Part shown: positions 16,931-35,609 of the stretch, in pieces | Position numbering within the stretch: the first letter of the stretch is position 1 | Layout of the letters: each line of letters begins with the position of its first letter | From: Parasedimentitalea huanghaiensis | Lineage (GTDB): Bacteria > Pseudomonadota > Alphaproteobacteria > Rhodobacterales > Rhodobacteraceae | Direction of reading: 5' to 3' | DNA length: 64,000 nt | Assembly (NCBI RefSeq): GCF_009753675.1 | Contig: NZ_WQLV01000001.1 | Span: forward strand, 682,001 to 746,000 | The notes under the pieces: model-generated | What the model saw: only the letters and a program-made list of their open reading frames with translations | Database searches by the model: none | Told to the model about the DNA's origin: nothing | Translations under genes and position numbers: made by a program

Positions 16931-17263
16931 TTAGCGAACCACACCGTCCAGAAGCACCAGGCTGGTGTCGGACGGATCTGCAGCCGCAACCGACGCAGCA
17001 CCAATCACTGAGTTGCCACTGGTCGCAGTGGTGCAACGCTTGTTGGCATCGTCCCAGTAAATCTTGGCACCCTGCGTCCAGGCCTGCGCACTGGTCTTCA
17101 CCAGATCAAAAACGCCCCGGCGCCTAAGCTGCACCAGCTGACCTGCCAAGGTATCAGTCGAGGCCACGCCAAAGAGCGCCCCAACCTTGCACCCCTCGCC
17201 GGATTTGACATCGTATGGCGCGATAACGGGAATAACCTCGCCGTCATGTTTATGGTTTTTCAT
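16931..17263 (-). CDS. Capsid cement/decoration protein (DUF2190-like)
   Basis: The 110-residue protein matches the layout of DUF2190 capsid cement proteins: an early I-P-V-I-A-P-Y-D-V-x-S-G-E-G stretch, G-A-L-F-G-V-A, then G-A-K-I-Y-W-D-D and a terminal L-L-D-G-V-V. These proteins stabilise the mature capsid from outside. It lies 100 bp after the capsid gene on the same strand. That 100-bp gap is rich in GC and may hold a weak hairpin. Confidence 0.85.
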   Translation of the reverse strand: MKNHKHDGEVIPVIAPYDVKSGEGCKVGALFGVASTDTLAGQLVQLRRRGVFDLVKTSAQAWTQGAKIYWDDANKRCTTATSGNSVIGAASVAAADPSDTSLVLLDGVVR

Positions 17264-17363: not shown

Positions 17364-19745
17364 TCAGGACTGGCCAGGGTTCTTGTACAGCCCGTGATAG
17401 GCCATCGGTGATACCCCAGCGTCCAGACGAACCTTCATTTCCGTGCCGTCAACGCTCCATCCGTCCTGCTGTTCGATGAACGGTTCGCGCATCCCATCCA
17501 GGTAAGCGACTTCGATCGTGTCATGTGAACTTGGATCAGCAAGCAAGAACCAGCTATTTCCGGAAACCCGCGCGTCAAGGATTGGGTCAGCCGCTTTGTA
17601 CACGGTATTAAAGGCTTGCTGACCTTTACCGCCCGAAGTGTCCGGGGCCTTTTCCGAGTTCAATGCCCGCAACACTGCCGCCCGCTGCACATGCCCTGCC
17701 AGCAGGAACCGAGGCGAGATGTTTAGGACAGCGTTTTTGTCCTCAGACTTGCGCGGCTTCTGCTGTGCCATGGCAGTTAAACCCGCATCGATCGTACCTT
17801 CGGACGGCGCAGCACCAGTTTCAGACAGGTTGCCGTGATCCGCGTGGAACAGCGCCTTGCCATCGGACATTGCAGGGTTGCCATTCAGCACCGCAAAGAC
17901 CAATGCACCAACGGTGCGTTTTGATGCGCGCCCCATTTTGCGCGGAATATCAGAAAAGGCATCAAGGTCATCATTGATGACAGCCTGTCGCGAGATCTTA
18001 AACAGCTTGCCGTAGGTGGCCAGCATGATTTCCTCGCTGAAATCACCCATGGTTGCATATGTGAATTCTGCATCTTCATCGACTTCGGCCAGTGCAGGGA
18101 ACATCCCCATGCCGACACGCTTGGTCTTCTTGAAGTCAGTCAATGTGCCCGCGCGAGTGAACTGCTCGAAGCTTTCCGCCGCTTCATTGTAGCCCAACAA
18201 CATGGATTTATGCGCCACATCTGCCAATACATGGCCAAAGTCAGCCGTGGTATGCTGACCGCCCGCCATGCTGGGCACAAACGCCGCTCCAACCATAGAC
18301 ATCGCCCCGCCAATCGGCACAGCCAAACCGCGCGAAGTCAAAGTGTACCTGGCCATTTCACGCAATGACATGGAAGAAAATTCGTTTCGTTTGCCGCCCT
18401 CTAGGCCAACTTTGGCCGAGATCGCTTCGACCATGCCCGCACGGGTTCGCTCTACGCCATCGGTCACCACTCGCGCCGAAGTGTCATTATTACGGATATC
18501 CCCACCGTCTTGACTTTGCGAAGCCATCTTATCGATGATCTGCTCTCCAGCGGCCTCAACTGAGCCACCACCTGAGACCAATTCCTGTGCAAAATCAGCT
18601 GACAGTCCGGCCTTGGCAACCATGCCGGTGATTTTCACCGCTCGATCGGTCGCGGCAGCACCTGCATCTGGCACGGCTGCAACCGGGGTTGTGGCGGCCT
18701 GTTCGGTCACCGGCTGAATAACTTTGTCACTCATGTGACTCTCCTCGTGTTGCTGGGGAACTTTCGCCCCGGATACGCAGCCGGAGCTGCTCAGTGAAAC
18801 GCGGGTGCCTGCATTTGGAATGTTGCCATCCCATGCGCCGGTTTCATTCACCGATGCGACCATCGCATCGAATGCCTTTTTGGGATCTGCCACGCGATCA
18901 GCCAGACCAAGGCGCACGGCCTCAGGTCCATCGAAGCAGCGCGCTTCAGTGCTCAGCGCCGCTGACATGTCGAAACGATCGCCGCGCCCTTCCGCCACAA
19001 GCTGCGCAAGGGAGACGCGCATTTTTTCGCACTGTGTTTGCCACTCAGTCAGAAGTTCCTCAGACAGCGGCTCGATTGAGTTGCCTTCAGCTTTGCGCTG
19101 ACCTGCACGAATAATCGTGACAGTGATGCCCTCTTTATCCAGTTGCCGGGACTGTTCGGCATGCATGGCAATGACACCAATTGAACCACATCCGCCAAAT
19201 TCAGGGACAGTGATCAAATTGGCCTGACTTGCCAGGGCGTAACCTGCGGAATAGGCACTCTCTGCGCAAAAGGCATAGACAGGTTTGAACTGGCGCACTT
19301 CACGGATCTGTGCGGCCAACTCAAAAGCCCCAGCCGCTTCCCCGCCCGGCGTGTCTAGTTCCAGTGCGATCGCTTTGATTTCCGGATCGGCGGCTGCAGC
19401 CGAGATCTGCGCTCGCAATCCTTCATAGCTGGTCAGGCCCGAGGACTGCCCCAGCCAAGCGCCACGTCGCACCAGAGATCCAATCACCTCAATCACTGCA
19501 ACGCCCTGATGATTGAGGTACCCTTTGCGCTCTTGGGTCACATGCGTGACCAACCCGTCATGCAAAATCGATCCGGCTTTTGGGCCAGTGTTGCCGCTGG
19601 CCTGCTCTGCCATTGTGGCACCCAGGTCAACGTGAACCCCCAAAACCCGAGGGCTGAACGCTTCAGCAATGACGCGGGCTTTGCGCTCTTCGATCATCAG
19701 GGGCACGCCAAACATACGCTGCGCGACTTGGGCCATGTTACTCAT
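17364..19745 (-). CDS. Prohead protease-scaffold-major capsid fusion protein
   Basis: One frame codes 793 residues. Residues 1-310 form an S49/SppA-like prohead protease with Ser166 in S-A-Y-S-A-G-Y and Lys218 in G-Q-R-K-A-E, the usual Ser-Lys pair. Residues 338-450 are low-complexity and helical, like a scaffold. Residues 450-793 resemble the Mu gpT-type major capsid protein. The ATG at 19745 has AAGGAAA upstream and overlaps the portal stop by eight bases. An internal start at 18734 has a perfect ribosome site. Protease-capsid fusions are known in some siphophages, so this is unusual but not damage. Confidence 0.9.
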   Translation of the reverse strand: MSNMAQVAQRMFGVPLMIEERKARVIAEAFSPRVLGVHVDLGATMAEQASGNTGPKAGSILHDGLVTHVTQERKGYLNHQGVAVIEVIGSLVRRGAWLGQSSGLTSYEGLRAQISAAAADPEIKAIALELDTPGGEAAGAFELAAQIREVRQFKPVYAFCAESAYSAGYALASQANLITVPEFGGCGSIGVIAMHAEQSRQLDKEGITVTIIRAGQRKAEGNSIEPLSEELLTEWQTQCEKMRVSLAQLVAEGRGDRFDMSAALSTEARCFDGPEAVRLGLADRVADPKKAFDAMVASVNETGAWDGNIPNAGTRVSLSSSGCVSGAKVPQQHEESHMSDKVIQPVTEQAATTPVAAVPDAGAAATDRAVKITGMVAKAGLSADFAQELVSGGGSVEAAGEQIIDKMASQSQDGGDIRNNDTSARVVTDGVERTRAGMVEAISAKVGLEGGKRNEFSSMSLREMARYTLTSRGLAVPIGGAMSMVGAAFVPSMAGGQHTTADFGHVLADVAHKSMLLGYNEAAESFEQFTRAGTLTDFKKTKRVGMGMFPALAEVDEDAEFTYATMGDFSEEIMLATYGKLFKISRQAVINDDLDAFSDIPRKMGRASKRTVGALVFAVLNGNPAMSDGKALFHADHGNLSETGAAPSEGTIDAGLTAMAQQKPRKSEDKNAVLNISPRFLLAGHVQRAAVLRALNSEKAPDTSGGKGQQAFNTVYKAADPILDARVSGNSWFLLADPSSHDTIEVAYLDGMREPFIEQQDGWSVDGTEMKVRLDAGVSPMAYHGLYKNPGQS
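18732..18746 (-). promoter_or_regulatory. Internal ribosome binding site and start within protease-capsid gene
   Basis: On the minus strand GAGGAG is followed after six bases by an in-frame ATG (residue 338 of the fusion). It lies just after the protease domain and before the scaffold-like region. Initiation here would give a 456-residue scaffold-capsid protein without the protease, comparable to the nested scaffold start in lambda gene C but leading into the capsid. Confidence 0.65.
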
Positions 19746-21240
19746 CAGCGGTTTCCTTGCTGTCTGTGTTGGAATGTTGAGCACCGCTGGCGGTTGTTTT
19801 GCGCGGGTCACTGTCAAAAACTGCATCGCTGTCATCAGCGTTTGCATTGTCCTCTTCGATCTCTCGCTGCACACGCGCGGGATCTTCACCCGCCTCGCGA
19901 ATGACGCTTTGCCGCGATGCAAAACCAGAGCGCACCTTTTTGTTTAGAGCAGGATAATCCTTGGTTGGATCAACAACCGGACGGCGCGGTGCAGTCCATT
20001 TCAGGCGGTATTCAGTCGGATCGATCCCAGTCTTGAAGTGAACCGCCTCTTTGAACCAATCCCCAACGCGGGACATCTGTTTTGCGATCATCAATTCCTG
20101 CTGCCAAAAGCTGACAATCGGGTCCTGATCCATGCGGCCCATGCGGCCCGAGGAATAGTTCACGCGGCTGTAATCCCCGGTAAACCCTTCATAGGTCAGC
20201 ATCAAACCTGAGGCGATCAACCGATCGATCAACCGAACAACTGGCTCTGCATCCATGGCGCTTGGTGGTTCATTCCAATCAAGCTCATCACCGGCATCCA
20301 ACTCAAGAATTCCACCGGCTTCAATTTCGGACAGAAAATCAGAGCTATCGCCATCAGGATCATCATCGCTGCCAACCCTGCGCAGAATTCCGGCAAACAT
20401 CGCCGCAACTTCCTGCCGCTTCAGCGTGCCCTGCATGAACTTATGAATATCCATCAGCTCGGGCATTACTGGCGTATACCAGCTAATCCCTCTCTTCTGC
20501 CCTGGGCGATCCACCATAAACGCATGGGCGATATGTTCAGCGGCCACACGCCTCACATTTCCGCCGCCATAGACCGAACCGGGATGCTCTGTGTGCAGGT
20601 GAAAGAACTCACTTTTCCCAGTGGGACCGTATTCAATACCGTCCTCGATCCGCCGCCCATTTGTGCCCTGCCCGGTGTCCCGGTTCGTTGTAAGGTAATC
20701 CGTTTCCAAACATTGGATTTGGAATGGAAGCGGCAGCCCATCTTTTGACCTGCGCAGGCGACGGCGCAGCAGCACCTCCCCCGAGGTCGGGATCGTTTTC
20801 ATAGACAAAGATTGCAGGCCGAACAAAGTAGAATTGCCATCCGCATCAATGGCCGTGGTCAGCAAGTGATCTTCAATCAGACCCTCAATGCGTTTTTTGT
20901 TCTGGCTTGCCTCCGCACTGACCATCTCCACCACCGGGCGTATACCTGCGCCAATTGCATAACCGGAAAACAGATTGTTTGCCCGCACCACACGGGGATT
21001 GTTGCGCAGCATATCGCGGGCAATAAAGGCCAGCGGCATGCGCGCTCCTTGCATTGCCCCCTGTGCATCGCGCCCATTGCGATAGAATTCTTGCGAGCGG
21101 CGACCGCCCCCAACTGGTGCATAACTACCAGCCGATGCCTGCCGATCAACTCGACGCGATCGCAGTAGGTCAAGCTTGGTTCGAGCGATCTCTCGACGCA
21201 GTGCCATTTCTGGAGCCACGTAGGACAGAAAACCACCCAT
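19738..21240 (-). CDS. Portal protein (lambda gpB-type)
   Basis: The 500-residue protein is a lambda-type portal: a basic N terminus, N-N-P-R-V-V-R-A-N-N-L-F, the early A-I-G-A-G-I segment, S-G-E-V-L-L-R-R-R, W-Y-T-P-V-M-P and G-D-Y-S-R-V-N-Y-S-S. It forms the dodecameric ring through which DNA enters the head. The start overlaps the gpW-like stop as TGATG, and its end overlaps the protease start. The C terminus is acidic and low complexity, as is common. Confidence 0.92.
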   Translation of the reverse strand: MGGFLSYVAPEMALRREIARTKLDLLRSRRVDRQASAGSYAPVGGGRRSQEFYRNGRDAQGAMQGARMPLAFIARDMLRNNPRVVRANNLFSGYAIGAGIRPVVEMVSAEASQNKKRIEGLIEDHLLTTAIDADGNSTLFGLQSLSMKTIPTSGEVLLRRRLRRSKDGLPLPFQIQCLETDYLTTNRDTGQGTNGRRIEDGIEYGPTGKSEFFHLHTEHPGSVYGGGNVRRVAAEHIAHAFMVDRPGQKRGISWYTPVMPELMDIHKFMQGTLKRQEVAAMFAGILRRVGSDDDPDGDSSDFLSEIEAGGILELDAGDELDWNEPPSAMDAEPVVRLIDRLIASGLMLTYEGFTGDYSRVNYSSGRMGRMDQDPIVSFWQQELMIAKQMSRVGDWFKEAVHFKTGIDPTEYRLKWTAPRRPVVDPTKDYPALNKKVRSGFASRQSVIREAGEDPARVQREIEEDNANADDSDAVFDSDPRKTTASGAQHSNTDSKETADE

Positions 21241-21444: not shown

Positions 21445-23580
21445 TCACACTCTCATTTTGCCGACACGCCGCTTGCGCCGCTTCGGTTCTGGGTTTGGTT
21501 GATCCGGGATTTTGGGGATCTTTGCTCCGGGCACCCAATGGGGATTTCCATCGCCCAGAGTTGCCCAGTTTGGTGGCGCTTCCAGATTGATCCGGCGCAG
21601 CCCTTTATGTTCAGCCATCGCTTGAGCCTGGACTGACAAGTCAAAGCTCTCGTTTCGTTTCTGGCCGTGCTTTAAGGCCCAGCCTTTTTCCAGCCGTTCC
21701 TCAGCGCAGAACTCTGCCATATGATCGTCACTCAAAAATTCAGGCAGCGGGAAACTGCGCCGGTCACCAGGCGCGCGCATCAATGCTGCTGCAACAGAAT
21801 CCTTCAGCCGGTCCGTTGCCATATTCAGCAACTTGATCCGGCGGCCTTTGTTCTTCTTATTCGACCGCTCCGGTGCTTCATGCCAGACGCGATCACGCTG
21901 TTTGAAACCACCATGACCACGGGTCAGGAACCAACGGCTCCCCTCTCCCGCCTTCACCCGTTTGCGCCAGAACTCTTCAGCGTTGTCGCTGACACCCGGT
22001 TGACCCTGGAAGTCCACGCCCAAAGCAAGGGCGCGTAGTGCACAATCAGCGCCATCGACCACCCAAAGCATGTGGCCCAGCTCAACCAATACGGCCCAGT
22101 CTCCAGGGTACTTGCCCGGATCTAACTTCCGTTTGGGGATCTCGCCCTCAGTTAAGGGTGGTGGCTGTGTTAAATCGAAGCGGTCAATCACCGTGCGGGT
22201 GCCATCAACACCCCAGCCTGTAGCCTGCACTGTGAAATAGGTGCCCTGAACATCAACCGAAACGGTGATAAATCTGACCCAGGCAGGCGCAACACCACGT
22301 TGCACCAGTTGCTGCTTTTCCTTCAGTGCAGTGACGTTTAAATCGCCGTCATCATCTTCACTGGCCCGCGCATAAGGCAAACCAACTTCTGTGTACATGA
22401 ACCGGCCAAGCGCCAGGTCATCATCCATTTCTTCAACTTCGCGCACCGCATCCAGATATCTGGCAACCATGCTGGACCAGTTGGAAAACGTGGCCGCAGC
22501 CCCATTTAAGGCCCAGCTTGCAATCTCGGAGCCTCGGATCGCCGCATCGCCAAGCGGCACCACAGCGCCACCATGCTCAGCCTCATGAAACCAACCGCCT
22601 CGATCGCGCAATCCAGCCCGGTTGAATTCGTTTCTATGTTGCGCCCCAATCAGACAATGGCAGTGAGGACACTCCATTTCAGCGGTTTCGCCAGCGTCGA
22701 TCGGTGGCAAATCTGCATTGTAGTGCAGCCTGTCAAAGCGCGGTTCGAACAGAATTTCACAGTCGCGACATTCCCAGTACCAGCGCCCCCGTGTGCCACG
22801 GTTATATAGGGGAACAATGCCATGGCGCACTGGCGGCAATTCGTGTGGCGCATCTTTACGCGCGGCCCAGTTCGACTTCTTTACCGGCCATGCCGGCGTA
22901 CTTTCAGCAAACAGAAATCCACGCGACATAAACGTCTTGCAACGCTGCAGCCCCATATCAAAGGCAGACCCTTCCGGCGCATCCTTACGCACCCCAAGTT
23001 CTGGCGGGAAGTGATCGTAATCCGTCATCCCAACAAAGCGGTATTTGGCAGAGGACAACCATTGTGGTGTCGGATAGCCAAGCGTCAGACGCATGCCACG
23101 AAACCGCTTGCGCCCGAATGTATCGTCATCACGCGCACGGCCCAGCCGCTCACGCACTTCAGGGCTGTTCTGGATCACAGTATCCAGCGATTCCTCGACC
23201 CAGCGATCCCGGCTTGGGCGATCCATATGAACCACCAATGCCGGACCCGGATCACAGGTCACCGGATGCAGCGCGGTTGTGATCAGGGCCATCGTTTTGC
23301 CAGACTGCGACGGCCCGACAAAGGCACCCGCGCGATAGATACGCGATTGCGTCGTATCGACCGGCTCCACCATGTAGGGCGTGACCTCGCGGTCGTAGTT
23401 TTGCCAGACGCCTCGGGTCTCCACCCGTACAAACCGCTCAGCTGCTTCGGTTGGTGTTAATCGGCTAGGCGCATCCAGAAGCGGCAGCGAGTCCATCAAC
23501 ATGTCTTGCGCCGAGGCGAACGGCGGCAGAGGCGGCAGGTCGTGAACCTGTCCTAGCGCATAGTCTGAATTTTGAACCAT
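21445..23580 (-). CDS. Terminase large subunit (gpA family)
   Basis: The 711-residue protein packages DNA. The Walker A region is G-P-S-Q-S-G-K-T (about residue 90), in the modified form usual for gpA terminases. A later zinc-like C-R-D-C...C-P-H-C-H-C cluster lies near residues 270-310. The nuclease half includes D-V-Q-G-T-Y-F and later D-F-Q-G-Q. It follows the small subunit by two bases. The gpA type suggests cohesive-end or related packaging, but the ends cannot be read here. Confidence 0.93.
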   Translation of the reverse strand: MVQNSDYALGQVHDLPPLPPFASAQDMLMDSLPLLDAPSRLTPTEAAERFVRVETRGVWQNYDREVTPYMVEPVDTTQSRIYRAGAFVGPSQSGKTMALITTALHPVTCDPGPALVVHMDRPSRDRWVEESLDTVIQNSPEVRERLGRARDDDTFGRKRFRGMRLTLGYPTPQWLSSAKYRFVGMTDYDHFPPELGVRKDAPEGSAFDMGLQRCKTFMSRGFLFAESTPAWPVKKSNWAARKDAPHELPPVRHGIVPLYNRGTRGRWYWECRDCEILFEPRFDRLHYNADLPPIDAGETAEMECPHCHCLIGAQHRNEFNRAGLRDRGGWFHEAEHGGAVVPLGDAAIRGSEIASWALNGAAATFSNWSSMVARYLDAVREVEEMDDDLALGRFMYTEVGLPYARASEDDDGDLNVTALKEKQQLVQRGVAPAWVRFITVSVDVQGTYFTVQATGWGVDGTRTVIDRFDLTQPPPLTEGEIPKRKLDPGKYPGDWAVLVELGHMLWVVDGADCALRALALGVDFQGQPGVSDNAEEFWRKRVKAGEGSRWFLTRGHGGFKQRDRVWHEAPERSNKKNKGRRIKLLNMATDRLKDSVAAALMRAPGDRRSFPLPEFLSDDHMAEFCAEERLEKGWALKHGQKRNESFDLSVQAQAMAEHKGLRRINLEAPPNWATLGDGNPHWVPGAKIPKIPDQPNPEPKRRKRRVGKMRV

Positions 23581-35524: not shown

Positions 35525-35609
35525 TGGTGCGGGTGAAGGGACTCGAACCCCCACGCCTCGCGGCGCCAGAACCTAAATCTGGTGCGTCTACCAATTCCGC
35601 CACACCCGC
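35525..35609 (-). tRNA. tRNA-Leu (anticodon UAG)
   Basis: An 85-nt tRNA reads leftward. The acceptor stem GCGGGTG pairs with CACCCGC, the anticodon arm is CCAGA-TTTAGGT-TCTGG with UAG at the anticodon, the T arm contains GTTCGAGTC, a long variable arm is present as in leucine tRNAs, and CCA is encoded. It serves as the prophage attachment site; integration leaves it intact here. Confidence 0.95.

What the first reader, a model, noticed from the sequence alone, without database searches (positions are those of the whole stretch)
17364..19745. Protease-scaffold-capsid fusion with a perfect internal ribosome site
A single 793-codon frame carries an S49 protease (Ser166, Lys218), a scaffold-like stretch and a gpT-type capsid protein. 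GAGGAG six bases before in-frame ATG 18734 would let ribosomes make a 456-residue scaffold-capsid protein alone. This suggests a dose-control design: little protease fusion and much capsid from one gene, like lambda C/Nu3 but leading into the capsid.
Basis: partly seen in the sequence, partly recalled or inferred. Interest (0 to 1): 0.7.

Follow-up and report, generated by a model that had tools for sequence, protein, structure and literature searches.

The report
Phage protease-capsid gene with internal start
A virus that appears to be integrated in a bacterial genome makes its head-cutting protease and its shell protein from one gene, and a second translation start inside that gene, kept in most relatives examined, would let it make much shell protein and little protease.

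Summary
On the minus strand, window 19745..17364 is one 793-residue frame: S49 protease, disordered linker, helical scaffold, capsid. In-frame ATG 18734 (residue 338) follows GAGGAG by six bases, the best Shine-Dalgarno (SD) of 25 in-frame ATGs scored, and lies in the linker.

Protease-capsid fusions are known; the S49 kind is a rare version (5 of 113 non-redundant fusions). I saw no report that an internal start is general in them. The same scaffold-capsid module is fused to three protease types (S14 73, S78-like 35, S49 5), with six type changes on a quick capsid tree. In 104 of 113 genes an SD motif plus in-frame ATG marks the junction (synonymous shuffles: mean 65.8, highest of 200 was 76; out of frame, 11 genes). 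In 89 of 89 S14 loci with one motif, the codon supplying the SD's AG ends in G. Split lambda-type C genes have it too (34 of 40).

Best reading: a Nu3-type internal start makes capsid in excess, while few full-length subunits carry protease into the shell. Products and ratio are untested.

The parts
17364..19745 (-). protease-scaffold-capsid fusion gene, 793 aa
   Evidence: Pfam S49 at residues 151-296 and Phage_capsid_4 at 488-789
19753..19758 (-). AAGGAA, weak SD of the full-length start (duplex -5.4 kcal/mol); the start overlaps the portal gene stop
18735..19745 (-). residues 1-337: protease part (SppA fold, about 77-302 in the model) and first part of the linker
19248..19250 (-). Ser166 codon, predicted nucleophile
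19092..19094 (-). Lys218 codon, predicted general base
18672..18812 (-). disordered linker, residues 312-358 (pLDDT under 50)
18741..18746 (-). GAGGAG, internal Shine-Dalgarno (duplex -8.9 kcal/mol)
18732..18734 (-). internal ATG, residue 338, proposed start of the 456-aa scaffold-capsid protein
17364..18734 (-). proposed separate 456-aa scaffold-capsid product
18408..18665 (-). helical scaffold-like part, residues 361-446
   Evidence: helices; matches of separate C-type proteins reach residue ~420
17379..18365 (-). capsid domain, residues 461-789
19738..21240 (-). lambda-family portal gene directly upstream
21445..23580 (-). gpA-type large terminase
16931..17263 (-). cement/decoration protein directly downstream

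Best explanation
One mRNA gives two nested products. Ribosomes entering at 19745 (weak SD, overlapping the portal stop) make the 793-residue protease-scaffold-capsid protein. Ribosomes entering at 18734 (strong SD) make a 456-residue scaffold-capsid protein in excess. The full-length form co-assembles through its own capsid domain, which puts a limited number of tethered S49 proteases inside the procapsid. After assembly they cut the linker and scaffold, which clears the interior for DNA. Shown by sequence and comparison: domain order, the catalytic pair, the internal SD and ATG, and their conservation across relatives and protease types. Inferred: that both products are made, the excess of the short one, co-assembly, and cleavage.
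For: Strongest SD of 25 in-frame ATGs scored, in a disordered linker between folded parts. M338 and E334 invariant in 5 of 5 S49 fusions. SD motif plus in-frame ATG at the junction in 104 of 113 non-redundant fusions, against a synonymous-shuffle mean of 65.8 (sd 4.1, highest of 200 was 76) and a codon-order-shuffle mean of 26.3 (highest 38). By ATG: junction 126 of 313, protease 88 of 814, scaffold and capsid 43 of 1309. Out of frame in the same junctions: 18 of 249 and 0 of 12 ATGs, 11 and 0 genes. In S14 genes with the EFxxMP motif, codon -5 is GAG, CAG or AAG in 29 of 29 non-redundant genes and 89 of 89 loci (57, 19, 13); it is the only fully G column of 20 and of 35 E/K/Q columns. The site is present across six protease changes on a quick capsid tree. 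Split C genes: 34 of 40, shuffle mean 20.0, highest 27; lambda has AGGAGG before C codon 309.
Against: No expression or protein data. 9 of 113 fusions lack the motif in the junction. The first, narrower energy-based test was mixed: at -7.7 kcal/mol S14 21 of 73 against a shuffle mean of 16.1 (highest 26) and S49 2 of 5 against 0.9 (highest 3), though S78 gave 18 of 35 against 8.0 (highest 14). The motif and wider window used later were chosen after looking at examples. For the S49 class alone the synonymous shuffle does not exclude chance (5 of 5, mean 3.5, highest 5). In L179 the internal SD is weaker than the N-terminal one (-6.3 against -9.5), and in the window the internal site is more folded than the first start (-16.1 against -10.3 kcal/mol). 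In the S78 class 25 of 89 protease-region ATGs also carry the motif. Rows are related, so counts are not independent.
Confidence: 0.8

Rival explanations
1. Only the full-length protein is made and the protease cuts itself off; the SD-ATG is a chance by-product of Lys/Glu-rich linker codons.
For: Given the amino acids, shuffled codons still give a motif in a mean of 65.8 of 113 genes, so the linker peptide alone explains part of the signal. Processing of heads by such proteases is well established (recalled).
Against: Observed 104 of 113, above all 200 shuffles; out-of-frame sites are rare; codon -5 ends in G in 89 of 89 loci while the residue is E, Q or K; M338 is invariant in the S49 set.
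Confidence: 0.1
2. The site is a relic of a formerly separate scaffold or Nu3 start, no longer used after fusion.
For: A like site exists in split C genes.
Against: It persists across diverged fusion lineages with three protease types, with codon-level constraint in the S14 group; a relic should decay.
Confidence: 0.06
3. The internal start is used, but mainly to make a minor free scaffold-capsid product, with the full-length fusion as the bulk form.
For: The relative strength of the two starts varies; in L179 the first start has the better SD, and in the window the internal site is the more folded.
Against: In 4 of 5 S49 fusions the internal SD is the stronger. A shell made mostly of 793-residue chains would hold one protease per subunit, unlike lambda, where C is minor (recalled).
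Confidence: 0.12
4. The SD-like element is a translation pause that helps the protease fold before the capsid is made, not a start.
For: SD-like codons at a domain boundary would fit a pause (inference).
Against: The element is tied to an in-frame ATG at start-codon spacing; ATGs of the other frames in the same junctions rarely have it (18 of 249 and 0 of 12).
Confidence: 0.03

Closest known systems
Phage lambda C / Nu3 (with E)
   Same: S49 protease with Ser/Lys pair and scaffold in one frame; a strong SD-ATG in the same protease/scaffold junction (lambda gpC codon 309; recalled as the mapped Nu3 start, whereas the record annotates codon 239); portal and large terminase of lambda type alongside
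   Different: In lambda the frame stops after the scaffold and the capsid protein E is a separate gene; here the frame runs on into a PF25209 capsid. The pairwise alignment does not put lambda M309 in exactly the column of M338
MD8 gp5 / NCBIfam NF045540 ClpP-like prohead protease-major capsid fusion
   Same: Same scaffold-capsid half; one gene for protease, scaffold and capsid (PMC8508860, passages read)
   Different: ClpP/S14 protease in place of S49. 'internal' and 'start codon' do not occur in that paper's text. The window scores 449.2 bits against a 475 cut-off
Fused protease-capsid genes of Paracoccus prophages
   Same: S14-gpT fusions in 17 (34%) of the siphovirus prophages of that study (PMC6536676, passages read)
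   Different: S14; no internal start in the passages read
Arthrobacter cluster AM/AU capsid-protease fusion
   Same: Apparent fusion of capsid subunit and maturation protease in one gene (PMC5513430, passages read)
   Different: Relation to this capsid family not tested; no internal start in the passages read
Herpesvirus UL26/UL26.5 (recalled)
   Same: Protease-scaffold with a nested shorter, abundant scaffold product
   Different: Separate promoter rather than an internal ribosome site; capsid not fused

Membership tests
NCBIfam NF045540 / NF045541 protease-capsid fusion proteins | score above the curated cut-off | tested here: not met
   449.2 of 475 and 407.2 of 525 bits; the N-terminal protease is of another type
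Phage_capsid_4 (PF25209) | score above the gathering cut-off | tested here: met
   172 bits against 27
Peptidase family S49 | score above cut-off and Ser/Lys pair | tested here: met
   77.8 against 24.9 bits; S166 and K218 invariant; SppA structures as top fold matches. Catalysis not tested
Lambda C/Nu3 system | S49 protease and scaffold in one frame | tested here: met
   (phrog_53, residues 1-413); scaffold role inferred
Lambda C/Nu3 system | internal SD and start codon for the scaffold | tested here: met
   sequence only; use not tested
Lambda C/Nu3 system | separate capsid gene E | tested here: not met
   the capsid is in the same frame; the search of the own genome found no second homologue of the capsid half at E 0.001
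Mu-like gpT capsid (PF10124) | clear family score | tested here: inconclusive
   20.3 against 20.1 bits, residues 567-648 only

The most novel reading that the evidence does not exclude
Internal initiation is a general rule of this whole class of protease-scaffold-capsid fusion genes. It makes the scaffold-capsid part an independently translated module, and so lets phages change the fused protease (S14, S78-like, S49) repeatedly without losing the low-protease, high-capsid ratio. The rule reaches E. coli and Pseudomonas phages (mEp213, cdtI, MD8) in which the gene is annotated as one product.
Probability: 0.65. Interest if true: 0.72.

Novelty: new variant of a known kind. Interest (0 to 1): 0.56.

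Why it matters
A gene that fuses a protease to every shell subunit poses a dose problem: a shell of hundreds of capsid copies (recalled for lambda) would hold hundreds of proteases. A conserved internal start answers it in sequence terms and turns 'one gene, one fused protein' annotations into a prediction of two products that a lysate of a laboratory coliphage can test. It also offers a reason why one capsid module has been joined to three different proteases.

Tried and rejected
Rejected: Mu-like gpT as the main label of the capsid (marginal). Rejected: GTG codon 92 with GAGGTG as a rival start; it lies inside the protease domain and Glu86 is not among the invariant columns. The first statistical pass used energy thresholds and an 85-codon junction, which left out the sites of L003 and L100. 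At -7.7: S14 21 of 73 (mean 16.1, highest 26), S78 18 of 35 (8.0, 14), S49 2 of 5 (0.9, 3). At -6.5: S14 38 of 73 (25.0, 33), S78 24 of 35 (10.3, 16), S49 2 of 5 (1.2, 3); 100 shuffles each. I then widened the window and used 4-base SD motifs after inspecting examples. Two stricter 6-base sets give 91 of 113 against 45.2 (highest 56) and 54 of 113 against 22.8 (highest 30).

Single-sequence scans of viral contigs and genome contigs found nothing; alignment scans did, each capped at the best 80 of about 600 listed stretches, with more existing. Four seeming stand-alone capsids were looked at and not used: L342 lies behind transposase-like frames (by eye), L343 runs to the contig end, L345 holds an S78-like frame, and L344 had no protease match. 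No solved structure of the capsid half was found by sequence. The first run of the codon -5 test on non-redundant genes had no class filter, took in one S78 row and showed 29 of 30 at a shifted column; rerun with the filter it gives 29 of 29.

Rows dropped: of 258 loci then held, 226 had a capsid frame; 10 had no protease class; 212 were classed and complete, and 113 remained after removing rows sharing half or more of their 5-mers: 35 from loci up to L098, 53 from genome contigs, 25 from viral contigs. L138 has an odd capsid boundary: kept in the counts with a default junction, dropped from the tree (112 rows). Split C genes: 110 loci with an S49 match; frames running off the 3' end were dropped (5' run-offs were not), leaving 40 non-redundant ones, lambda among them; three of the six misses (L277, L318, L336) end within 30 residues of the protease match. 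Protease classes come from my own profiles. Pfam was run on 20 fusions: L061, L080 and L104 had no protease hit, and L033, L098 and L139 matched S78 below its cut-off; the other 14 agreed. Loci were taken by similarity to the window protein, its protease part or alignments with them, and the 40 stretches were picked by me from the list; none of it is a random sample. On the tree one change rests on a long-branch row (L069), the method was quick and without mixture model.

Full report
What is there. Window 19745..17364 (minus strand) encodes 793 residues. Pfam finds peptidase S49 at residues 151-296 and Phage_capsid_4 at 488-789. PHROGs finds a head maturation protease family at 1-413 and a 'major head and protease protein' family at 338-792. 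AlphaFold (mean pLDDT 78.9, pTM 0.52, 50-row alignment) gives a protease at about 77-302, a linker at 312-358 with pLDDT under 50, helices at 361-446 and a capsid part from about 461. Foldseek matches SppA first (4kwb, 3rst; best E 3.2e-13), and from rank 21 encapsulin-type shells (2e0z, E 2.3e-7; HK97 fold, recalled). Neighbours are a Nu1-like protein (below Pfam's cut-off), gpA terminase, lambda-family portal, cement protein and head-tail attachment protein, so this is a lambda-like head module. Only 1 of 8 genomes of the genus has the gene at E 1e-60.

The internal start. GAGGAG-AGTCAC-ATG puts residue 338 behind the best SD of the 25 in-frame ATGs scored, -8.9 kcal/mol, against -5.4 at the first start. 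The site lies in the disordered linker. The local mRNA fold is not more open there than at the first start (-16.1 against -10.3).

The S49 fusions. Five distinct ones were found: the window, L003/L101 (Maritimibacter alkaliphilus; the two contigs have the same length), L099 (Rhodobacteraceae MAG), L100 (Ruegeria) and L179 (IMG/VR). M338 and E334 are invariant in all five although the linker around them varies, and all five have an SD motif at the junction. The internal SD beats the N-terminal one in four; L179 is the exception (-6.3 against -9.5) (first starts of the relatives picked by me). Of the 80 viral loci fetched with the protease half, L179 was already known as a fusion; the other 79, and 31 more loci tested with them, showed no capsid in the protease frame (0 of 110). 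The S49 fusion is thus rare next to split C genes.

The family. The scaffold-capsid half occurs behind three protease types. After redundancy removal there are 113 fusions: S14 73, S78-like 35, S49 5. Pfam, run on 20 fusions, agreed in 14; three S78-classed rows had no protease hit and three matched S78 below its cut-off. On a quick capsid tree of 112 rows the protease type changes six times (the least possible is two); the S49 rows form one group with support 100 next to S14 rows, and starred branches force at least four changes for S14 and three for S78. One change rests on the long-branch row L069, and stars of a quick tree deserve less trust.

Is the start under selection? With the motif AGGA, GGAG or GAGG at -16 to -5, 104 of 113 genes have an in-frame ATG so marked in the junction. 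Synonymous shuffling gives 65.8 (sd 4.1, highest 76), shuffling of codon order 26.3 (sd 4.3, highest 38), 200 rounds each. By class under synonymous shuffling: S49 5 of 5 (3.5, highest 5), S78 31 of 35 (17.2, highest 24), S14 68 of 73 (45.1, highest 54). By ATG: 126 of 313 in the junction, 88 of 814 in the protease, 43 of 1309 in scaffold and capsid. Out of frame in the same junctions: 18 of 249 and 0 of 12. The best-SD in-frame ATG of the gene lies in the junction in 4 of 5 (S49), 21 of 35 (S78) and 31 of 73 (S14) genes, against 0.7, 5.5 and 8.9 expected from the share of ATGs. In the S14 group with the EFxxMP motif the codon five before the Met is GAG, CAG or AAG in 29 of 29 non-redundant genes and in 89 of 89 loci (57, 19 and 13). 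It is the only fully G column of 20 E/K/Q columns in the first set (mean 0.59) and of 35 in the second (mean 0.50). MD8 (M220), mEp213 (M211) and cdtI (M188) show the site directly.

A control with a known answer. In split C genes, 34 of 40 have an SD-ATG at the same junction (shuffle mean 20.0, highest 27). Lambda, one of the 40, has AGGAGG before codon 309 of C. From memory, that is where Nu3 was mapped by protein sequencing; the record puts nu3 at codon 239, where I see no strong SD at the usual spacing. I could not confirm the mapping in the papers held.

Weak points. The sample is by similarity and capped, rows are related, and the motif was fixed after a first look. The first energy-based test was mixed. 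For the S49 class alone the synonymous shuffle is not decisive. No product has been seen.

What is known. Fusion of protease, scaffold and capsid in one gene is described for MD8-like phages (PMC8508860, passages), of protease and capsid for Paracoccus prophages (PMC6536676, passages), for Arthrobacter AM/AU phages (PMC5513430, passages), and noted for other actinophages (PMC12760985 and PMC9671378, passages). PMC3224144 was seen in passages for Nu3. None of these passages describes an internal start in such a fusion, and I saw none in the listings of the ten searches (three returned nothing). The library lacks most subscription journals, so priority is not claimed.

Noticed in passing
L259 (lambda NC_001416 4200-7300), codons 239 and 309 of gene C: The record annotates nu3 at an ATG without a strong SD at the usual spacing (codon 239), while AGGAGG precedes the ATG at codon 309.
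   Followed up: partly
L345 (1941-3923 and 3319-3903): A frame with S78-like and capsid matches overlapped by a second frame that carries another capsid match; looks frame-shifted.
   Followed up: no
L342 (2944-3957): Capsid part of a fusion alone, behind transposase-like frames; no protease match was found in the stretch fetched.
   Followed up: partly
window 35525-35609: tRNA-Leu, the only tRNA gene ARAGORN finds in the window.
   Followed up: no
capsid tree: S14 and S78-like rows stand side by side within one well-supported group (L104, L106, L118, L185; L104 had no Pfam protease hit), which suggests protease exchange in front of one capsid.
   Followed up: partly
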